The translations under genes were made by a program, and so were the position numbers. This document shows positions 50,380 through 58,859 of a stretch of DNA of 64,000 bases, in pieces. Origin of the DNA: Sinorhizobium saheli (GTDB lineage Bacteria; Pseudomonadota; Alphaproteobacteria; Rhizobiales; Rhizobiaceae); contig NZ_LNQB01000068.1 in assembly GCF_001651875.1 (NCBI RefSeq), positions 1 to 64,000 on the forward strand, read 5' to 3'. The notes under the pieces are model-generated. The model was not told where the DNA came from and did not search any database. It saw nothing but the letters and a program-made list of their open reading frames with translations. Positions within the stretch are counted from its first letter, which is position 1. Each line of letters opens with the position of its first letter.

Positions 50380-50967
50380 ATGGCCAAGCTCTACTTCAGC
50401 TATGCGACGATGAATGCGGGCAAGAGCACGCTGCTCCTGCAGGCCGCCTACAACTATCAGGAGCGCGGCATGCGCGTCGTCATGCTGATCGCCGCCTTCG
50501 ACGACCGCGCCGGCACGGGCCGCATCGCGTCGCGCATCGGCCTCGAATCGGAGGCGATTCCCTTCCACGCGAAGGACGATCTCTACGGGCTCATCGAGCG
50601 CCTGACCGGCGACGGCTCCGGCGAAATCGCCTGCGTCTTCGTGGACGAGGCGCAGTTCCTCGGCGAGGAGCAGGTCTAGCAGCTTGCCCGCGTCGCCGAT
50701 CGCCTCGGCATCCCGGTGATGGCCTATGGCTTGCGCACCGATTTCCAGGGCAAGCTCTTTCCGGGCTCGATGGCGCTTCTGGCGCTTGCGGACGAATTGC
50801 GCGAGGTCAGGACGATCTGCCATTGCGGGCGCAAGGCGACGATGGTCGTGCGCCTCGACGGCGACGGCAAGGTCGTGCGCGAGGGAGCGCAGGTGGATGT
50901 CGGCGGCAATGAAAAGTACGTCTCCTATTGCCGGCGCCACTGGGAAGAGCGGATTCGCAAGGGCTGA
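50380..50967 (+). pseudogene. tdk: Thymidine kinase, interrupted by an in-frame TAG
   Basis: The frame begins MAKLYFSYATMNAGKSTLLLQ (P-loop) and reaches the catalytic Glu in VFVDEAQFLGEEQV. A TAG stop then stands at codon 100 (50677-50679), and the same frame runs on with [22 protein letters not shown], the substrate lasso region and zinc cysteines ICHCGRK and SYCRRH to 50967. Homologues have an aromatic residue at this place (Tyr in E. coli, Trp in rhizobia as I recall), so a single TGG to TAG change explains it. The enzyme makes dTMP from thymidine. The truncated product lacks the lasso and the zinc site and should be inactive. Confidence 0.9.
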
Positions 50968-51178: not shown

Positions 51179-52267
51179 ATGGCGACGCTTCAGAATTTTG
51201 ACGCGGAAATCGAGAAGACGCGCGGCGTCGTTGACCAGATGCGCAGCAAGCTGGAGCAGTCCGGCGTCGTCCTCGAACAGTTCGCCAAGGCCGACACGAA
51301 GCTCGGCGACGTCAATTTCGATATCGAGAACGCCCGCATCCAGGACGTGATCAGCCAGCAGAAGGTGATGGAAGCCAACATTGCCGATCTCATCATCGGG
51401 CTGGAGGACGCGACCAATGTCTTCGGCGCCGAATTCGAAAGCATGAAGAGCTATACCGGCTACGAGAAGTTCATCGGCATCTTCTCCAAGCAGGCGATGC
51501 AGCGGATGCGCACCGATCGCGTCCGAAACATGTCGCTCGCCGGCAACCTGCAGGAACTGCTCTCCAAGTCCGACACCATCGTCGGCATCCTCAAGGAGCA
51601 GCGGTCGATCCTCGACCAGCGCTACAAGACCTCCGAACAGAGCCTCATCCAGGTGATCGAGCGGCGCAAGGGCACCATGGCGGCGCTCGAGGAGACGCAG
51701 AAGCGTATCGAGGAACTCAATCCGCTGCTGCTCGACATCGAGAACCGGATCGCCGCCTCGACCGACCAGATGACCCGCACCGGACTCGAAGCCGAGCGTT
51801 CGCAGCTTGCCACCGAGTATAACGAGAAGCAGGCGAAGGAGCAGGAGCTGCTCGCCGAGAGCCAGACGCTCGAGCGCTACACGGCGATGTTCCAGACCTT
51901 CGTCGATTCGCTCAACAACCAGATCGCCGCCCAGAACACGCTGATCAACAAGCTGACCATCGACACCGAGCAGCGCATCGTCCTCTACAAGGCGCTCGAG
52001 GACTCGCTGAAGACGGCGGCGCAGCAGGACGTTGCCCACAAGATCAACACGCTCGGCAGCCAGGTCGACACGGCCGCCGAGGAGACGATGGCGGGGATCG
52101 GCGCCGCCGCGCAGCGCCATATCGGCGACCTCTTGGAAATGCATGAAAAGAACATGCTTGCGACGCAGGATATCCAGCGGCGCAAGAAGCTCGCCGATGA
52201 CGCCTTTGCCCGTCGCTTCCAGTCGGTGATGGACAAGCACAATGCCGCAAACTACGTGAAGCAGTGA
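51179..52267 (+). CDS. Coiled-coil protein of unknown function, first gene of the AAA ATPase cluster
   Basis: This 362-aa protein is almost wholly helical, with long heptad-like runs such as LEEFAK, RIEELNPLLLDIENRIAAS and NEKQAKEQELLAESQTLERY. It has no signal peptide or membrane helix. A weaker resemblance to TelA/toxic-anion-resistance-type coiled-coil proteins is possible but not convincing. It has ATG at 51179 after GGAGGGAGAAATCGA, and is 60 bases upstream of a second unknown gene, then an AAA ATPase, all on the same strand. A role as scaffold or substrate of the ATPase is inferred from context only. Confidence 0.8.
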   Translation: MATLQNFDAEIEKTRGVVDQMRSKLEQSGVVLEQFAKADTKLGDVNFDIENARIQDVISQQKVMEANIADLIIGLEDATNVFGAEFESMKSYTGYEKFIGIFSKQAMQRMRTDRVRNMSLAGNLQELLSKSDTIVGILKEQRSILDQRYKTSEQSLIQVIERRKGTMAALEETQKRIEELNPLLLDIENRIAASTDQMTRTGLEAERSQLATEYNEKQAKEQELLAESQTLERYTAMFQTFVDSLNNQIAAQNTLINKLTIDTEQRIVLYKALEDSLKTAAQQDVAHKINTLGSQVDTAAEETMAGIGAAAQRHIGDLLEMHEKNMLATQDIQRRKKLADDAFARRFQSVMDKHNAANYVKQ

Positions 52268-52327
52268 TCGGCAAGGCGGCATGACCAGCTTTCCGACCGC
52301 CTTTCGGCATTTGCCGGGAGGACTTGA

Positions 52328-53476
52328 ATGAACACCGCGGTTCCCCCTGCCGTCAGGCAGTATTTCGCCTCCATTCGCGCCGCTTTGGCCGGGCTCGAGC
52401 TCTTCCTCGGCGAGCGCAATTCGCCGCTCTACCGCAACACGGTCGTCGGGGAGGTCATCGTTCCCTTTCTCGCCCGGCTGAAGGCCTCCGTTGCTTGCTG
52501 GGAGAACCGCATCGGCTTCGTCGAGCATTTCCGGATATCGCGTGCGGAAAGCGGATTCCCCGTTTTCCAGAGCGTGCTGGAGCTCGAGAACGACCGGCAG
52601 AGCGCGGAGAAGCGCCTGGCGAACATCCCTGCCGCCGATGCGCTGCGCGAGGAGATGGTGGATTTCATCCTCCGCCAGAAGGCCTTTCCGGAGGCGCTGC
52701 AGGCCCGCATGGCCGAGAGGCTCTATCTCGAGCAGATCGGCAAGGGCGACATCTTCTCGCCGTTCATCCTGCCGGAGACGATCCGGGTCGCCGTCAATCC
52801 GAGGACGATGCGGCCCTATTACGTCGTCTCCTGGGGGGCCTTCGACGGCAGCCAGACCTTGCCCATGGTCTATATGGCGACGATCGAGGATTCCTCGGAA
52901 GACATCGTCCGGATGCTGGTCACCGAAGACGGCAGGCTCAACCCCGACGTGGATATCCCGCTTCCGGTCGGCGGCCTGCTCAATCCGGAGCTTGCGAGCC
53001 GTTTCGACGATTTCGCCTCGAAGAACAGCGCCTATTCGCTGACGCCGGTGACGATCGCCACCAATCTCGACAAGGATTTCCCGGAACTGCACCCGAAGCA
53101 GCTTCGGCGCATCGTGCTCGGACCGTTCTATTCGGCCGGCATCACCGAGAACAATGCGAGGATCAACGAGATCCTCTCCAAGGTGCGCAAGAGCGAAAAT
53201 GCCTGGCTGCTCACCTGGACGGTGCAGGAGGTCTTCTCGAAGGCGGAGCGGCCGGCGAGGCGAGGCTTCTGGTCGACGACGCCGGCGCAGGAGGAATTCC
53301 ATATCGATACCGCCAATCTCGAGGCGGCGCGCATGGGGGTGAGCGCCTACGAGAAGCACGCGCTGGTGCCGCACGACGCCTACCAGGCACTCTATGCCGC
53401 CGGCGAGGCGGGGCAGGTCTTCGGCGATTACAAGGTGCATGTCATTTCCGGCAACCAGGTGGTGAGCGAGGTTTGA
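52328..53476 (+). CDS. Protein of unknown function, 382 aa (AAA ATPase cluster)
   Basis: This soluble protein begins MNTAVPPAVRQYFASIRAAL. It has an N-terminal helical part (to about residue 130) and a C-terminal alpha/beta part with RPYYVVSWGAFDGSQTLPMV, EDSSEDIVRMLVTEDGRLN and LRRIVLGPFYSAGITENN. No catalytic motif of a known family is seen. It ends 3 bases before the AAA ATPase start, so the two are surely co-translated. A partner or adaptor of the ATPase is the natural guess. ATG at 52328 after GGGAGGACTTGA. Confidence 0.82.
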   Translation: MNTAVPPAVRQYFASIRAALAGLELFLGERNSPLYRNTVVGEVIVPFLARLKASVACWENRIGFVEHFRISRAESGFPVFQSVLELENDRQSAEKRLANIPAADALREEMVDFILRQKAFPEALQARMAERLYLEQIGKGDIFSPFILPETIRVAVNPRTMRPYYVVSWGAFDGSQTLPMVYMATIEDSSEDIVRMLVTEDGRLNPDVDIPLPVGGLLNPELASRFDDFASKNSAYSLTPVTIATNLDKDFPELHPKQLRRIVLGPFYSAGITENNARINEILSKVRKSENAWLLTWTVQEVFSKAERPARRGFWSTTPAQEEFHIDTANLEAARMGVSAYEKHALVPHDAYQALYAAGEAGQVFGDYKVHVISGNQVVSEV

Positions 53477-53479
53477 GCC

Positions 53480-55396
53480 ATGACGTTGAATGCGGGCCTG
53501 ACGACGCTGCACGAGGACGACATCGCCAAGCATCAGGCGGTGGCCCAGAGCCTCGTGACCAAGCTGGTGATCCTGGAGAAGGAAGATGCCGCCGCCGGAA
53601 CCCCGATCGCCGGCACCGGCCGCCGCTTCGTCTCCACCGTTTCGACCGGGGGCCAGCGCCGCACCCGCGAGATCGAACTTCAGCGCACCATCCAGGCGGT
53701 GCGCGGCGCCGATCCGCTGCTGTCACCGGCGCAGCATGCGGTGCTCTACCGCACGCGCCGCGGCATCCAGGTGGCGCTTGCGGTGGCCGAGGTCTTCGGG
53801 CGGCAGACCGATCTCGAACAATTGCAGGCGCGCAATGCGAGCGCACCGCTTGCCGGCGAGGACGCCGCACACTTCAAGGCGCTGCTGTCGGCTTCGGCCT
53901 ATGTCGCGGCCTTCACGCTTGCCGCCTATATAGGCGCGACGCTTGCGGGGGAGGGCGAGCCCGTCGACGACGCCGCCGAGCCGGATTTCCTCTTCGACAC
54001 GCCGCAGGACGCACTGAAGAGCATGGTTGCCGGCCTTGAGCGCAGCATCGCCGGCGCGCCGGACGACCTGACGCTCACCGCGCGGGCGCGCGCCTTCTCG
54101 CGCGTCGCGATCGAGGGATTGATCGCCCGCAAGGCGCGCTTCACCGGGCTGCAGAGTTTCGAGACCGTGCATCTCCGGCTCGACCAGGACGACTTCACCC
54201 TCAACGGCTTCGATGTCGCGCCCGGGCAGAAGCGCAAGCCCCTGGTGATGACCTTCAAGAAGCCCGAGGAGATCATCGGCAACCACATCGCCAAGTACCA
54301 GGCGCTGAAGCTCGCCAAGATGCTGATGGCCTACGATTTCGACCGGCAGATGAACCCCTTCGTCGAGCTCGGCGGCTTCCTCTTCACCTTCATCGGCGAC
54401 GGCATGCCCGGCACCGGCAAGACGATTCTCATCCAGATGCTCGCCGGCATGCTTCACGACTATTGCGGCGTCGCCGGCTACCCCTTCCACTACGAGAATT
54501 TCGGCGTCGACCAGATATCATCCTACCAGGGCAAATCCGGCCAGAACTGCAAGGAGTTCGTCAACAACGTGATGAACCCGCGGGCGATCGGCTTCGGCAC
54601 GATCGACGATGTCGACCAGGTGGCGGCGAAGCGTTTCGACGACCGGGCCTCGGCCGGCCAGCACGAGGTGACGGCGGTGCTGATGGAGAGCTTCGCCGGC
54701 GCCTCCACCGTGGTGCGCGGCAACTGCACCTTCGGCATGTTCTCGAACTACCCGGAGAATGTCGACGATGCGCTGCGCCAGCGGGCCGGCGCACGCTGGC
54801 TGGTCGACGGGCCGCAGACGGAGACGGACTATATCGATATCTTCGCGCTCCTCGTCGGCAAAAACCACGAGATTCCGCTCGGGCAACACGAGCTCTATGC
54901 CGGCCAGGAAATCAAGCGCGCGGTTTCGCAATCCTACGCCGCGCATTCGCGTCCGCAGGAGGAGGGGCTCGCCGCGGTCTGGGAACGCTACGAGAAAGAG
55001 AAGGGCAAGATCGCCACGCTCGCCGATGTCGGCGCCTATCTGCACATGATCAAGGAAGCCGAACCGCGCTTCACCGGCCGGGCGATCAGGAACATCACCG
55101 ATGCGATCAAGATGCGGGCGATCGACGTCGAACTGCCTGACGACTGGTTCAAGGATGCGGGCTCCTTCATGCACAAGTCCTACGACGAGAAGAAGGCCAT
55201 GATCGAGGAACTGCGCGGGCCCATCACCATCGACATGGTGCTGCAGGAAATCAACCGCTATGCCGACAGCGAGTTCCGCTACACCGACAAGTCCGACGAT
55301 GCCGCCGTCGCCGACATCATCCGCCGCGAGCGGCAGCGGGAAAAGGCGATCCGCGAGATCGAGACGATGAAGCGCGAGGGCAGGTGGCAGGGATGA
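53480..55396 (+). CDS. AAA-family ATPase, 638 aa, core of an uncharacterised cluster
   Basis: Residues 1-280 form a mostly helical N-terminal region with no known domain. The AAA module follows: Walker A FIGDGMPGTGKTILIQ (about 306-315) and Walker B AIGFGTIDDVDQV (about 370-379), in which the catalytic Glu seems to be replaced by Asp. Then come MESFAGASTVVRGNCTFGMFSN, a sensor 1-like region, and RQRAGARWLVDGP, a possible Arg finger. The tail is charged and helical. It lies 3 bases after the 382-aa gene. The DUF559 gene and repeats then interrupt before the next cluster gene. A MoxR-like or disaggregase-type remodelling role is inference. Confidence 0.85.
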   Translation: MTLNAGLTTLHEDDIAKHQAVAQSLVTKLVILEKEDAAAGTPIAGTGRRFVSTVSTGGQRRTREIELQRTIQAVRGADPLLSPAQHAVLYRTRRGIQVALAVAEVFGRQTDLEQLQARNASAPLAGEDAAHFKALLSASAYVAAFTLAAYIGATLAGEGEPVDDAAEPDFLFDTPQDALKSMVAGLERSIAGAPDDLTLTARARAFSRVAIEGLIARKARFTGLQSFETVHLRLDQDDFTLNGFDVAPGQKRKPLVMTFKKPEEIIGNHIAKYQALKLAKMLMAYDFDRQMNPFVELGGFLFTFIGDGMPGTGKTILIQMLAGMLHDYCGVAGYPFHYENFGVDQISSYQGKSGQNCKEFVNNVMNPRAIGFGTIDDVDQVAAKRFDDRASAGQHEVTAVLMESFAGASTVVRGNCTFGMFSNYPENVDDALRQRAGARWLVDGPQTETDYIDIFALLVGKNHEIPLGQHELYAGQEIKRAVSQSYAAHSRPQEEGLAAVWERYEKEKGKIATLADVGAYLHMIKEAEPRFTGRAIRNITDAIKMRAIDVELPDDWFKDAGSFMHKSYDEKKAMIEELRGPITIDMVLQEINRYADSEFRYTDKSDDAAVADIIRRERQREKAIREIETMKREGRWQG

Positions 55397-55422
55397 TTGA
55401 TCGTCTCATTGCCCTGGGCTTT

Positions 55423-55636
55423 GCCCCTCACCCTAACCCTCTCCCCGCAGGCGGGGAGAGGGGACGAGGTCCGCGTTTGGGATTGCCGTTGGTGGATTCC
55501 GGACACGCCTTTGCTGGATTAGGCGGGTGCAAATCGCCCCCGGCTGACGGCCATTTGTGTCTCGGACTGGCACCGTCGGCCGCAACGGAATCCCCTCTCC
55601 CCGCGTGCGGGGAGAGGGCCAGGGTGAGGGGCAGCC
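55423..55636. repeat. Palindromic repeat, left of the DUF559 gene (about 214 bp)
   Basis: It begins GCCCCTCACCCTAACCCTCT, has CTCCCCGCAGGCGGGGAGAG, an inner spacer with CTTTGCTGGATTAGGCGGGT, then CTCCCCGCGTGCGGGGAGAG and ends GGCCAGGGTGAGGGGCAG. The whole is an interrupted RIME-like palindrome of the same build and orientation as 56087-56298. Confidence 0.85.
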
Positions 55637-55652
55637 ACAAGGTGAAGCGCGC

Positions 55653-56060
55653 ATGAGAGGGGCCAACGAACGCCGGACGCAGCGCGCCAGAGACCTCAGA
55701 CAAGGCGACAACGACGCAGAGTCGATCCTGTGGTCGGAACTGCGGGACAGGCGCCTCAACGGCTTCAAGTTCGTCCGGCAGTTTCCGATCGGCGCTTACT
55801 TCGCCGATTTCGCCTGCCGCGATGCGCGGTTGGTCGTTGAAGTAGACGGCAGCCAGCACGCCGTCAGTAGCCGCGATGTTGCGCGCGACAAGTACATGCT
55901 CCTGAACGGTTGGAGCGTGGCTCGCTTTTGGAACACGCACATATTCCGCGATCGCGCCGGGGTTTTGGAGACGATCGTTGCCATTTTGGAGAAGCGATTG
56001 GTGCGCGAGGTAAGGACGACGGATTTGACGTTCATTCCTGCGGGTGGAAGACATGATTGA
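55653..56060 (+). CDS. DUF559 (Vsr-like, PD-(D/E)XK) endonuclease-domain protein
   Basis: This 135-aa protein starts MRGANERRTQRARDLRQGD just behind a palindromic repeat and has the DUF559 pattern LWSELRDRRLNGFKFVRQ, FPIGAYFADFACRDARLVVE, VDGSQHA and WSVARFWNTHIF. The Asp in YFADF, the E-V-D pair and Gln-His form the nuclease-like active site of this superfamily. Members are widespread, often near repeats, but their DNA target is not known. The gene lies between two copies of one palindromic element and cuts into an otherwise compact operon, which suggests it came in with them. Confidence 0.85.
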   Translation: MRGANERRTQRARDLRQGDNDAESILWSELRDRRLNGFKFVRQFPIGAYFADFACRDARLVVEVDGSQHAVSSRDVARDKYMLLNGWSVARFWNTHIFRDRAGVLETIVAILEKRLVREVRTTDLTFIPAGGRHD

Positions 56061-56086
56061 AATGTCGAGATTTGCCTTGCGATTTG

Positions 56087-56298
56087 CCCCTCTCCTCGGG
56101 TTCAACCCGAAAACTAGCCCTCTCCCCGCTCGCGGGGAGAGGGGACGAAATCGCTTGACCGCATTGTATTATCCGGATTCGGGGTTGTTTGATGGTCGGT
56201 TTCGACGCACTTCGGCTGGGTGGGGCGGAGCGTCCACGCACGACGCTGGCATCCCCTCTTTCCGTGCGCGGGGAGAGGGCCAGGGTGAGGGGCAGAGG
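56087..56298. repeat. Palindromic repeat, right of the DUF559 gene (about 212 bp)
   Basis: It begins GCCCCTCTCCTCGGGTTCAA, has CTCCCCGCTCGCGGGGAGAG, a spacer with CACTTCGGCTGGGTGGGGCG, then CTTTCCGTGCGCGGGGAGAG and ends GGCCAGGGTGAGGGGCAG. It is a second copy, same orientation, of the element at 55423-55636; the outer parts are near-identical and the spacers are related but diverged. Confidence 0.85.
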
Positions 56299-56345
56299 CG
56301 GAGGCTCGGTGAGAGGCAGAGGATGCGCCGTGGGAGCACCACCGC

Positions 56346-57635
56346 ATGAAACGCCTCCTCGAAGCGGAACTCATCTACGGGCGGCTGCTCGAGATCGCCG
56401 AGCCGCATTTGATCGCACGCTACAACAAGGCGCTCGGGGGCTTCGGGTTGAAGCCGACCGGGCTCGCGCGCTTCAGCATCGACATGACCGGCTTCTCGCC
56501 GGAGGTCGCCCACGAGCTCGGCGATCGCGACTATCTCGATCCCAATCGCGTCAACCGCCGCTTCATCATCCTGACGCCCGCGCAGGCGGAGCTGCCCGTG
56601 GTTCACACGAGCTTTTCCAACACCGCGGCGCTGATGCATGAATTCTTCAACGCCAACAGCCGGGCGATCAATGCGGTTACGATCAAGGACACGCTCTATG
56701 GCGAGATCGAGGATTCGGTCTCAATGGTCGAGGATATCGACGATCTCCTGTCGATCAACGAAGTGCGCTTCCGGGTGCTTTCGGCCGAGGACATGCTCGG
56801 CAAGGCGACCGAGCTTCGCGAACTCATCGACCGGCTGAAGAAGGTGCCCAATGCCTGGGCCGACGACCCCATGCTCGAGCGGATGGTGGAACTCGCCAGG
56901 ACGACCGGCGACATCCGGCAGAACGCGCTCGTTCCCGACGAGCTCGTCTTCCGCCACCAGGCCTTCTGGGCCAACCATTTCGGCGGTGTCTACGTCTTCC
57001 TCGACGAGAAGACGACGACGGTCATCTGCGATCCTTCGGTGCCGGGTTTCCGGCGGTCGCGGCCCTGGCAGGTGAGCTACATCGCGATTACCGACCACGC
57101 CCGCATCTACGACTTTCTCGCGACGACCAGGCGGCTGCAATTGCCGCAGGCATCCTGGGTGCAGGAATCCGGTCTTTTCCAGCACCGTGCGGACATGGTC
57201 GTGCGCGGCCTCATCAACGATGTCGATCCTGGGGCCGATCTGACGAATGCCGACCGGATCTGGCTGCAGACCTGGATTCACCGCAACGCCGCCCTCGTCG
57301 CGCGCGATGGGCTCTATCCGTTCCTCCAGGAAATGTCGCGGGCGATCGCCGCGACCGGCTCGATCAAGATGCAGGAGATCGCGCCCGAAAATCGTTTCCT
57401 CCTGGTGAGGGCCGCACCCGACCACCCCGACCGGTGGCTCGTCAACCAGCTCATTTCACAGCTCGTCCCCCGCGATTTCGTCTCGCGTTTCGTGTTCGAC
57501 AAGCAAGGCTTCTACGGCGCCTACGAACGCTACGGCGAAAAGTTCCGCGAATATGTTGTGGCAACGCTGACCGGCACATATCTCAGCGACAAGGCCGCCT
57601 TCCGCCACAAGCTCTACGGTCTCAAAGAGGAATAG
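56346..57635 (+). CDS. Protein of unknown function, 429 aa (DUF6638-like), AAA ATPase cluster
   Basis: This soluble protein starts MKRLLEAELIYGRLLEIAEP and has FSIDMTGFSPEVAHELGDRDYLDPNRVN, LMHEFFNANSRAINAV, FWANHFGGVYVFLDEKTT and GLYPFLQEMSRAIAATGS. The acidic stretch SMVEDIDDLLSINEVRF lies near residue 125. I recall it as a DUF6638 protein, but this is not certain. It has no membrane helix or signal. Its stop is 3 bases before the DUF2333 gene. It is separated from the AAA gene only by the DUF559/repeat insert, so it was probably in the same operon originally. Confidence 0.8.
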   Translation: MKRLLEAELIYGRLLEIAEPHLIARYNKALGGFGLKPTGLARFSIDMTGFSPEVAHELGDRDYLDPNRVNRRFIILTPAQAELPVVHTSFSNTAALMHEFFNANSRAINAVTIKDTLYGEIEDSVSMVEDIDDLLSINEVRFRVLSAEDMLGKATELRELIDRLKKVPNAWADDPMLERMVELARTTGDIRQNALVPDELVFRHQAFWANHFGGVYVFLDEKTTTVICDPSVPGFRRSRPWQVSYIAITDHARIYDFLATTRRLQLPQASWVQESGLFQHRADMVVRGLINDVDPGADLTNADRIWLQTWIHRNAALVARDGLYPFLQEMSRAIAATGSIKMQEIAPENRFLLVRAAPDHPDRWLVNQLISQLVPRDFVSRFVFDKQGFYGAYERYGEKFREYVVATLTGTYLSDKAAFRHKLYGLKEE

Positions 57636-57638
57636 GAC

Positions 57639-58859
57639 ATGTTCGATCCGATCGTTGCGTTCTTCCAGCGTGTTTTCACGGCGATCGGCCGTGGCATCGG
57701 CCTGGCGGTGGCGTGGATTCTCTGGCCCTTCGTCGCGCTCGGCGCCTGGTACCGGGGGCGGAGCTGGATCATCAAGGGGCCGATCGCGCTGATCCTCCTG
57801 GCACTCGTCGTCTTCTACGGATACTTCATCTGGCAGACGCAGGCCTGGACCAATTTCGATCCGGACTACGTCGATCGCTACAAGCTTGCCGAGCGCACGG
57901 TGCCGGCCGGTTCGCCGGTCAGCGGCCCGGGTGCGGCGACGGGTCAGTCCGGTGCCGCGGCGGGCGCAAACCAGGCCGCGGTCCAACCCTCCGGTGCCGA
58001 CAGCACGACCGAGGCGCTCGCCGTCGTGCAACTTCCGGCCGGAACGGTCTGCCAGACCTCGGCCATCGTCGACGTGACGGCGGATCTGATAGACCTCAAC
58101 GTCAACCAGAATGCCTGGATATCCTCGATGCTCGCCTACAAGCTCGGCTTTTTCGGGCTCGACTGGGACGACACGCCCTGGCTCGACAACAAGGCGTCGT
58201 TCCAGCGCGGCATAAACCAGGCGGTGCGGCGCACGGCGGTCGAGCTCGTCGATTCGCTCGGCCGCGTCCGCGGCACCTCAGGCATCAACAACGACCTGCA
58301 GAGCGCCCGCGGCAACATCCAGTTCGACGAGGAGACCTGGTATTTCGGCCTCAACCCCTTCGGCCCCAAGACCCCGACGCCGAGCTTCTACCGCGCCGCC
58401 GAGCGCGACTTCCGGAAGTTCAACGTCTCGCTCGGAAAATGCGAAGCGGTCTTCGACGGCCGGTCCGACAACATGGTCGAGTTCCTCGACCGCATCGCCA
58501 ACGACCTCGGCAATACCTCCGCCATCATCCGCGAGCGCTCGGAATTCCACAATGGCGGCTGGTTCGACACGCGGGCCGACGACCGCTTCTGGTTCTCCTT
58601 CGGCCAGCTCTACGGCTATTACGGCATCCTTTCGGCCGCCGGTGCCGACTTCGAGAATGTCGTCCAGCAACGCGGCCTGACGCCAATCTACACCGAGACG
58701 CTGAAGCAGCTTCGCTCGGCGCTGCGCATCCAGCCGCTCATCATCTCGAACGGCCGCGAGGATGGCTGGATCATGCCGACTCATCTCGCCACCATGGGCT
58801 TCTACATCCTTCGCGTCCGCTCGAACCTCGTCGAAATGCGCGACATCCTTGCGCGCTGA
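57639..58859 (+). CDS. DUF2333 family membrane-anchored protein
   Basis: This 406-aa protein has a short N-terminus with one or two membrane segments (about residues 8-32 and 46-67, PIALILLALVVFYGYFIWQ) and a large periplasmic domain with QTSAIVDVTADLIDLNVNQN, FFGLDWDDTPWLDNKASFQ, RGNIQFDEETWYFGLNPFGP and FGQLYGYYGILSAAGADFEN. This is the DUF2333 layout. A Gly/Ala/Gln-rich linker lies near residues 90-120. As last gene of the cluster it would place the system at the inner membrane facing the periplasm. Function is unknown across the family. Confidence 0.86.
   Translation: MFDPIVAFFQRVFTAIGRGIGLAVAWILWPFVALGAWYRGRSWIIKGPIALILLALVVFYGYFIWQTQAWTNFDPDYVDRYKLAERTVPAGSPVSGPGAATGQSGAAAGANQAAVQPSGADSTTEALAVVQLPAGTVCQTSAIVDVTADLIDLNVNQNAWISSMLAYKLGFFGLDWDDTPWLDNKASFQRGINQAVRRTAVELVDSLGRVRGTSGINNDLQSARGNIQFDEETWYFGLNPFGPKTPTPSFYRAAERDFRKFNVSLGKCEAVFDGRSDNMVEFLDRIANDLGNTSAIIRERSEFHNGGWFDTRADDRFWFSFGQLYGYYGILSAAGADFENVVQQRGLTPIYTETLKQLRSALRIQPLIISNGREDGWIMPTHLATMGFYILRVRSNLVEMRDILAR

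What the first reader, a model, noticed from the sequence alone, without database searches (positions are those of the whole stretch)
51179..58859. Uncharacterised five-gene AAA ATPase / coiled-coil / membrane protein cluster
Seen: five same-strand genes of matching style. They encode a long coiled-coil protein, a 382-aa unknown, a 638-aa AAA ATPase (3-base gap), a 429-aa unknown and a DUF2333 inner-membrane protein with a periplasmic domain (3-base gap). The ATPase has Walker A near residue 306 and a Walker B ending in Asp-Asp instead of Asp-Glu. Known: AAA ATPases with dedicated partners often remodel complexes or load metals, as MoxR/VWA systems do. Inference: these genes form one cytoplasm-to-periplasm machine with no described function. 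It is the best candidate in the window for a new system.
Basis: partly seen in the sequence, partly recalled or inferred. Interest (0 to 1): 0.8.

Follow-up and report, generated by a model that had tools for sequence, protein, structure and literature searches.

The report
Undescribed bacterial AAA ATPase five-gene module
A soil bacterium carries a five-gene cluster, built around an ATP-driven protein-remodelling enzyme, whose first four genes keep the same order in many other proteobacteria; it looks like an inner-membrane machine for which no description was found, and its job is still unknown.

Summary
Genes A (coiled coil), B (no family), C (AAA ATPase), D (DUF6638) and E (DUF2333, membrane) lie where stated; a DUF559 insert separates C from D. 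In a sample of 397 proteobacterial genomes, full-length A, C and D occur in exactly the same 34, always close together. A-B-C-D is colinear in 24 of 24 flank-checked loci, one from Vibrio, and in 75 of 80 species-genome loci; four of the other five are cut by contig ends. The fifth slot is exchangeable: DUF2333 in 23 and the unrelated DUF1523 in 52 of the 80, never both. DUF2333 also occurs widely alone. In seven same-family genomes lacking C and D, a diverged A still stands beside DUF2333. There A residues 276-320, 0.80 conserved elsewhere, are mostly lost, which suggests that this segment couples A to the ATPase module. Best reading: a membrane-tethered AAA machine remodelling A, with B and D as adaptors; contacts and function are inferred. 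MoxR/VWA, TelA and PspA/ESCRT-III kinship were not supported. I found no paper describing it.

The parts
51179..52267 (+). Gene A: 362-aa helical coiled-coil protein, no Pfam family; residues 276-320 are the candidate segment that couples it to the ATPase module
   Evidence: ORF; no Pfam match above cut-off; model (mean pLDDT 69.8) all helix with a long hairpin 120-193/197-278; segment analysis
52328..53476 (+). Gene B: 382-aa soluble protein, no family; helical N-terminal part, then a domain with strands and helices in the order beta-beta-alpha-alpha-beta-beta
53480..55396 (+). Gene C: 638-aa protein with one classical AAA ATPase domain and a long N-terminal part; Walker B ends Asp-Asp
   Evidence: Pfam PF00004; alignment; residues counted in 103 sequences
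55397..56345 (.). 949-base C-D gap with palindromic repeats and an inserted DUF559 (endonuclease-like) ORF at 55557-56060 (+); judged to be a hitch-hiker, not part of the machine
   Evidence: PF04480 117.8 bits; repeats; DUF559 in the C-D gap of 9 other loci (8 distinct contigs); lower GC3 (0.73)
56346..57635 (+). Gene D: 429-aa DUF6638 soluble protein
   Evidence: PF20343 249 bits; in the same 34 of 397 genomes as C
57639..58859 (+). Gene E: 406-aa DUF2333 protein with hydrophobic segments 16-34 and 40-67 and a large C-terminal part, presumably periplasmic
   Evidence: PF10095 55 bits; hydropathy

Best explanation
A-B-C-D-(E or DUF1523) encodes one inner-membrane-associated AAA machine. Shown: the four core genes keep together and in order; a protein with hydrophobic N-terminal segments follows them in nearly all loci; that slot is filled by one of two unrelated families; and where C and D are absent, a diverged A keeps its neighbour E but has largely lost one segment (276-320) that is conserved elsewhere. 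Inferred: A forms elongated helical assemblies near the membrane, tethered or regulated by E or DUF1523, whose large domain would lie in the periplasm. A C hexamer grips A through segment 276-320 and remodels or disassembles it with ATP. B and D, soluble proteins, act as adaptor and regulator. The biological output, most likely envelope maintenance or envelope-stress adaptation, is unknown.
For: Identical presence of full-length A, C and D in 34 of 397 genomes; match-to-match distances C-D at most 1.1 kb and A-C at most 2.4 kb. B was not searched genome-wide, but lies before C in all 33 loci. A-B-C-D colinear in 24 of 24 loci with flanks (20 of those 34 genomes and 4 of the 10 plasmid records, one a Vibrio with 40% identical C) and in 75 of 80 species-genome loci. 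One of DUF2333 (23) or DUF1523 (52) follows in 75 of those 80, both in none. E and DUF1523 show no kinship by profile comparison (0.5% probability), yet N-terminal hydrophobic segments are present in 30 of 30 E and 41 of 50 DUF1523 proteins. A diverged A and E stand side by side in seven genomes where C and D were not found. In these A proteins identity to the A consensus is 0.07 with 46% gaps over 276-320, against 0.31 over 225-275 and 0.29 over 321-355, although full A is 0.80 conserved there. C has Walker A residues 310-315, sensor-1 Asn423 and Arg433/Arg435 in 103 of 103. Independently, DUF2333 lies 0.7-2.2 kb from a PspA_IM30 gene in 13 of 16 genomes of one other, unnamed family, so DUF2333 sits beside a helical protein in two settings.
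Against: No physical interaction was predicted or measured. The segment loss is seen in one family and may be one event; the diverged A is also poorly alike at 21-40 (0.06, where full A is 0.57 conserved) and at 181-220 (0.12-0.15, 29% gaps), so 276-320 is the largest drop, not the only one. The Vibrio and R. leguminosarum plasmid loci have neither E nor DUF1523. DUF2333 occurs without C and D in 98 of its 110 genomes. Gaps are often too long for an obvious operon (median C-D 587, A-B 188 bases). One locus with ample flank, L063, has A-B-C but no D and no fifth gene. The A model is low-confidence; Foldseek gives no match at E 0.001. The PspA link of DUF2333 holds in 13 of the 67 genomes examined, all of one family, and may be one ancestral arrangement. 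Nothing points directly to envelope stress.
Confidence: 0.4

Rival explanations
1. Functional analogue of the PspA/ESCRT-III plus Vps4 pair: A is a membrane-remodelling polymer and C its disassembling ATPase, without common descent.
For: Helical hairpin in the model of A; DUF2333 near PspA in 13 of 16 genomes of one family; Ravi et al. 2024 (PMC11237479, passages seen) describe PspA/Snf7 with AAA ATPases in other bacteria and archaea.
Against: A vs PspA profile comparison gives 5.7-14.7% probability over 43-44 columns, and the diverged A 1.3%; no PspA or Snf7 match in Pfam for A and no MIT or Vps4 C-terminal match for C up to E 1; no significant Foldseek match of A.
Confidence: 0.15
2. A protein quality-control unfoldase with dedicated adaptors: C unfolds soluble or membrane clients and A is a scaffold rather than the substrate.
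For: The AAA domain of C is closest by sequence to FtsH-type, proteasomal and Cdc48-type AAA domains.
Against: No protease family matched among the five proteins; does not explain why A segment 276-320 decays where C and D are absent.
Confidence: 0.12
3. MoxR/VWA-like cofactor or metal insertion system; B would bind a small ligand.
Confidence: 0.06
4. Anti-phage defence system.
For: AAA plus unknown partners; weak PADLOC matches: TRIP13 to the AAA domain (E 2e-4) and LmuB to A (E 0.09).
Against: No other PADLOC match up to E 0.1; one copy per genome in all 34 and conserved order; next to fhs in L003, L035, L037 and L054 as in the window (by eye except in L054); no close relative found in viral contigs.
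Confidence: 0.04

Closest known systems
Classical AAA ATPases (Pfam PF00004; FtsH, proteasomal Rpt, Cdc48, katanin)
   Same: Walker A, sensor-1 Asn, second-region-of-homology arginines (motif names recalled)
   Different: Asp instead of Glu after the Walker B Asp, invariant in the 29 aligned; long N-terminal part without any family match; fixed neighbours A, B, D
PspA/Vipp1-ESCRT-III with AAA ATPase partners (PMC11237479, passages)
   Same: Helical protein beside a AAA ATPase and a membrane partner; DUF2333 lies near PspA in one other family
   Different: No sequence relation of A to PspA detected, no MIT domain detected in C, two extra soluble proteins B and D; the main text of that paper has neither DUF2333 nor DUF1523
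DUF2333 (PF10095), DUF6638 (PF20343), DUF1523 (PF07509)
   Same: E and D are members; the alternative fifth protein is DUF1523 in the three loci tested with Pfam and by tblastn in the others
   Different: Families of unknown function; no paper found for DUF6638, one for DUF2333 (two passages seen: a gene near a T6SS hcp locus) and four for DUF1523 (listing and abstract starts only)
TelA (toxic-anion resistance, PF05816)
   Same: Similar length and helical character of A (TelA character recalled)
   Different: Profile comparison 2.2% probability; own genome has no PF05816 match

Membership tests
Classical AAA ATPase (PF00004) - gene C | Match to the family above its cut-off | tested here: met
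   42 bits, cut-off 21.2
Classical AAA ATPase (PF00004) - gene C | Walker A GxxxxGKT (motif recalled) | tested here: met
   Residues 308-315; P310 to T315 invariant in 103 of 103
Classical AAA ATPase (PF00004) - gene C | Walker B with catalytic Glu after Asp (motif recalled) | tested here: not met
   Asp376-Asp377 in all 29 rows of A3, none of which came from the pattern scan; 103 of 103, but 78 of those came from a scan one of whose two patterns holds DD
Classical AAA ATPase (PF00004) - gene C | Sensor 1 Asn and second-region arginines (motifs recalled) | tested here: met
   N423, R433, R435 invariant in 103 of 103
MoxR/VWA systems | MoxR-type AAA plus VWA-domain partner | tested here: not met
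   No MoxR or VWA family among Pfam matches of the five proteins up to E 1
PspA/ESCRT-III - gene A | Sequence or profile relation to PspA_IM30/Snf7 | tested here: not met
   No Pfam match; hhalign 5.7-14.7% against a profile of 18 PspA sequences; positive controls within the A, B and D families 99.9-100%
PspA/ESCRT-III - gene A | ESCRT-III fold | tested here: inconclusive
Vps4 - gene C | N-terminal MIT domain and Vps4 C-terminal domain | tested here: not met
   Only PF00004 matched up to E 1
TelA - gene A | Match to PF05816 | tested here: not met
   No Pfam match; hhalign 2.2% against 20 extracted TelA ORFs, two of them badly cut
DUF6638 - gene D | Match to PF20343 above cut-off | tested here: met
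   249.4 bits, cut-off 27; Vibrio D 201.6 bits
DUF2333 - gene E | Match to PF10095 above cut-off | tested here: met
   55 bits, cut-off 22
T-fold enzymes - gene B | Tunnelling fold with ligand-anchoring acid (recalled) | tested here: inconclusive
Membrane-tethered remodelling machine (works like) | Physical contacts A-C, B-C, D-C and membrane tether | not testable with these tools
   Only single chains were folded here

The most novel reading that the evidence does not exclude
A separately evolved, ESCRT-like membrane-remodelling machine of proteobacteria: A polymerises at the inner membrane, the C ATPase depolymerises it through segment 276-320, B and D control loading, and interchangeable periplasmic sensors (DUF2333 or DUF1523) tell it when the envelope needs repair.
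Probability: 0.15. Interest if true: 0.85.

Novelty: new variant of a known kind. Interest (0 to 1): 0.6.

Why it matters
It is a compact, strongly conserved ATPase module in many proteobacteria (466 of 591 pattern-matching stretches in one species-genome scan encode a relative of C) for which I found no described function. The swap of the membrane partner and the loss of one segment of A where the ATPase is absent give direct, testable predictions about which protein the ATPase acts on and where.

Tried and rejected

Literature: DUF6638 0 papers, DUF2333 1, DUF1523 4; a combined search found none; a broad search gave noise. Tag search SMc02730-SMc02735 led to PMC3687685, one passage seen: a ChvI-bound fragment inside SMc02733. 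That this tag belongs to the cluster is my guess from recalled choXWV tags and was not verified, so it is not used. That I found no description in print rests, in a library that lacks most subscription journals.

The 80 are the best-scoring of 466, so not a random draw. One Shinella C ORF (L003) was read through to 904 aa by my extraction; it was left out of alignment A3 but is in the 103-sequence set. The sets (98, 100, 103, 100, 30 and 50 sequences) are smaller than the locus counts because ORFs of odd length or without a start were dropped. The PspA search was given 67 of the 73 same-phylum genomes with DUF2333; strand agreement and the absence of linkage in the other 54 were read by eye (three of the 54 were also checked). 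The tdk and fhs genes in unannotated loci were recognised by eye. Fifteen of 103 C sequences have a stretch that passes the hydropathy threshold; the window's C has none.
Full report
What is there. Third-position GC of 0.84-0.89 is close to the 0.90 of the downstream fhs gene. Pfam gives AAA (PF00004) for C, DUF6638 for D, DUF2333 for E and nothing above cut-off for A and B. NCBIfam gives nothing above its cut-offs. C and D are separated by 949 bases with a DUF559 ORF among palindromic repeats. A related ORF sits in the C-D gap of 9 other loci, 8 distinct contigs, so it is read as a hitch-hiker.

Is it a unit? In a sample of 397 genomes of the phylum (own genome included), C (E up to 1e-25) is in 34 and DUF6638 in 34. 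Gene A is in 39 at E up to 1e-5: 34 over nearly the whole profile and five over part of it and with weaker scores. The 34 genomes of full-length A, of C and of D are the same set; in each all three lie on one contig, with C-D at most 1.1 kb and A-C at most 2.4 kb apart, match to match. B was not searched genome-wide; it precedes C in all 33 loci. With wider flanks A-B-C-D is colinear in 24 of 24 loci (20 of the 34 genomes and 4 of the 10 plasmid records), from Sinorhizobium to a Vibrio record whose A, B, C and D are 38, 29, 40 and 26% identical. A scan of species genomes found 466 relatives of C among 591 matching stretches and kept the best 80. Of these, 51 read A-B-C-D-DUF1523, 22 A-B-C-D-DUF2333, 2 A-B-C-D, 3 A-B-C, one B-C-D-DUF1523 and one C-D-DUF2333. 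The incomplete ones end at contig ends except L063 (Roseovarius sp. ZX-A-9), a real exception without D and without a fifth gene.

The fifth slot. DUF2333 fills it in 23 of the 80 and DUF1523 in 52; both together in none. In the 24-locus set the numbers are 6 and 16, with neither in Vibrio and in an R. leguminosarum plasmid. Profile comparison finds no kinship between the two (0.5%). Hydrophobic segments near the N terminus are found in 30 of 30 DUF2333 and 41 of 50 DUF1523 proteins, and in none of the A, B and D proteins. DUF2333 by itself is much more common, 110 of 397 genomes, only 12 of them among the 34, so it looks like a recruited part.

Where the ATPase is absent. Five genomes and two more found with a local profile (seven: L155-L159, L171, L172) carry a diverged A beside DUF2333. 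These genomes had no C at E 1e-25 and no DUF6638, and the B profile found nothing in these loci. By eye, fhs lies 1.2-4.0 kb downstream in L155-L158 and L171, and tdk directly upstream in L155, L157 and L158, the neighbours of the window's cluster; so loss of B-C-D from the same place is the simplest history. Against 98 full A sequences, this diverged A has identity to the A consensus of 0.31 over residues 225-275, 0.29 over 321-355 and only 0.07, with 46% gaps, over 276-320, although full A is 0.80 conserved there. It is also low at 21-40 (0.06; full A 0.57) and 181-220 (0.12-0.15). The drop is largest at 281-300 (0.82 to 0.06). The simplest reading is that 276-320 serves the B-C-D part and the rest serves E or A itself. 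It may be a single evolutionary event.

A second context for DUF2333. In one unnamed family (f43) DUF2333 lies 659 to 2172 bases from a PspA_IM30 gene in 13 of 16 genomes; it is 13 of the 67 genomes given to that search. PspA is a membrane-stabilising coiled-coil protein that shares ancestry with ESCRT-III Snf7 (PMC11237479, passages seen). That a DUF2333 protein twice stands beside a helical protein is suggestive, no more.

Reading. I propose a membrane-tethered AAA machine in which C acts on A through segment 276-320, E or DUF1523 provides the membrane and periplasmic side, and B and D are adaptors. The unit and the segment loss are shown; the contacts, order of events and purpose are inferred. 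The ESCRT-like version is kept as a bold alternative, since sequence tests for PspA kinship were negative and the fold test was inconclusive. MoxR/VWA, TelA and defence readings have little or no support.

Novelty. The ATPase belongs to a known kind, but the module as a whole is undescribed in the papers I could search (the main text of Ravi et al. 2024 contains neither DUF2333 nor DUF1523). Hence new variant of a known kind, interest 0.6.

Noticed in passing
window 50380-50967 (+): The thymidine kinase gene upstream has one in-frame stop codon at about residue 100, while the S. meliloti Ak57 copy is annotated at full length; nonsense mutation or assembly error, not resolved.
   Followed up: partly
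window 55397-56345: DUF559 ORF among palindromic repeats of some 26-48 nt, inserted between C and D; a related DUF559 ORF is in the C-D gap of nine other loci (eight distinct contigs) and in the B-C gap of L068, which looks like a small repeat-borne mobile element.
   Followed up: partly
L002 12283-15744: In the Vibrio record a gene annotated as mfd (transcription-repair coupling factor) directly follows the A-B-C-D genes, in place of a membrane protein.
   Followed up: no
L175, L189-L199: DUF2333 near PspA_IM30 in 13 of 16 genomes of one unnamed family; in L175 two small ORFs lie between them.
   Followed up: partly
C-D gaps of L040, L041, L053 and of L044, L046: Two different extra ORFs (about 240 aa in the first three loci, about 277 aa in the other two) recur between C and D (compared by eye); possible accessory genes.
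   Followed up: no
L054 10688-11851: S. meliloti Ak57 has an IS4-type element in the C-D gap beside the DUF559 ORF; the gap seems to be a repeated insertion target.
   Followed up: no
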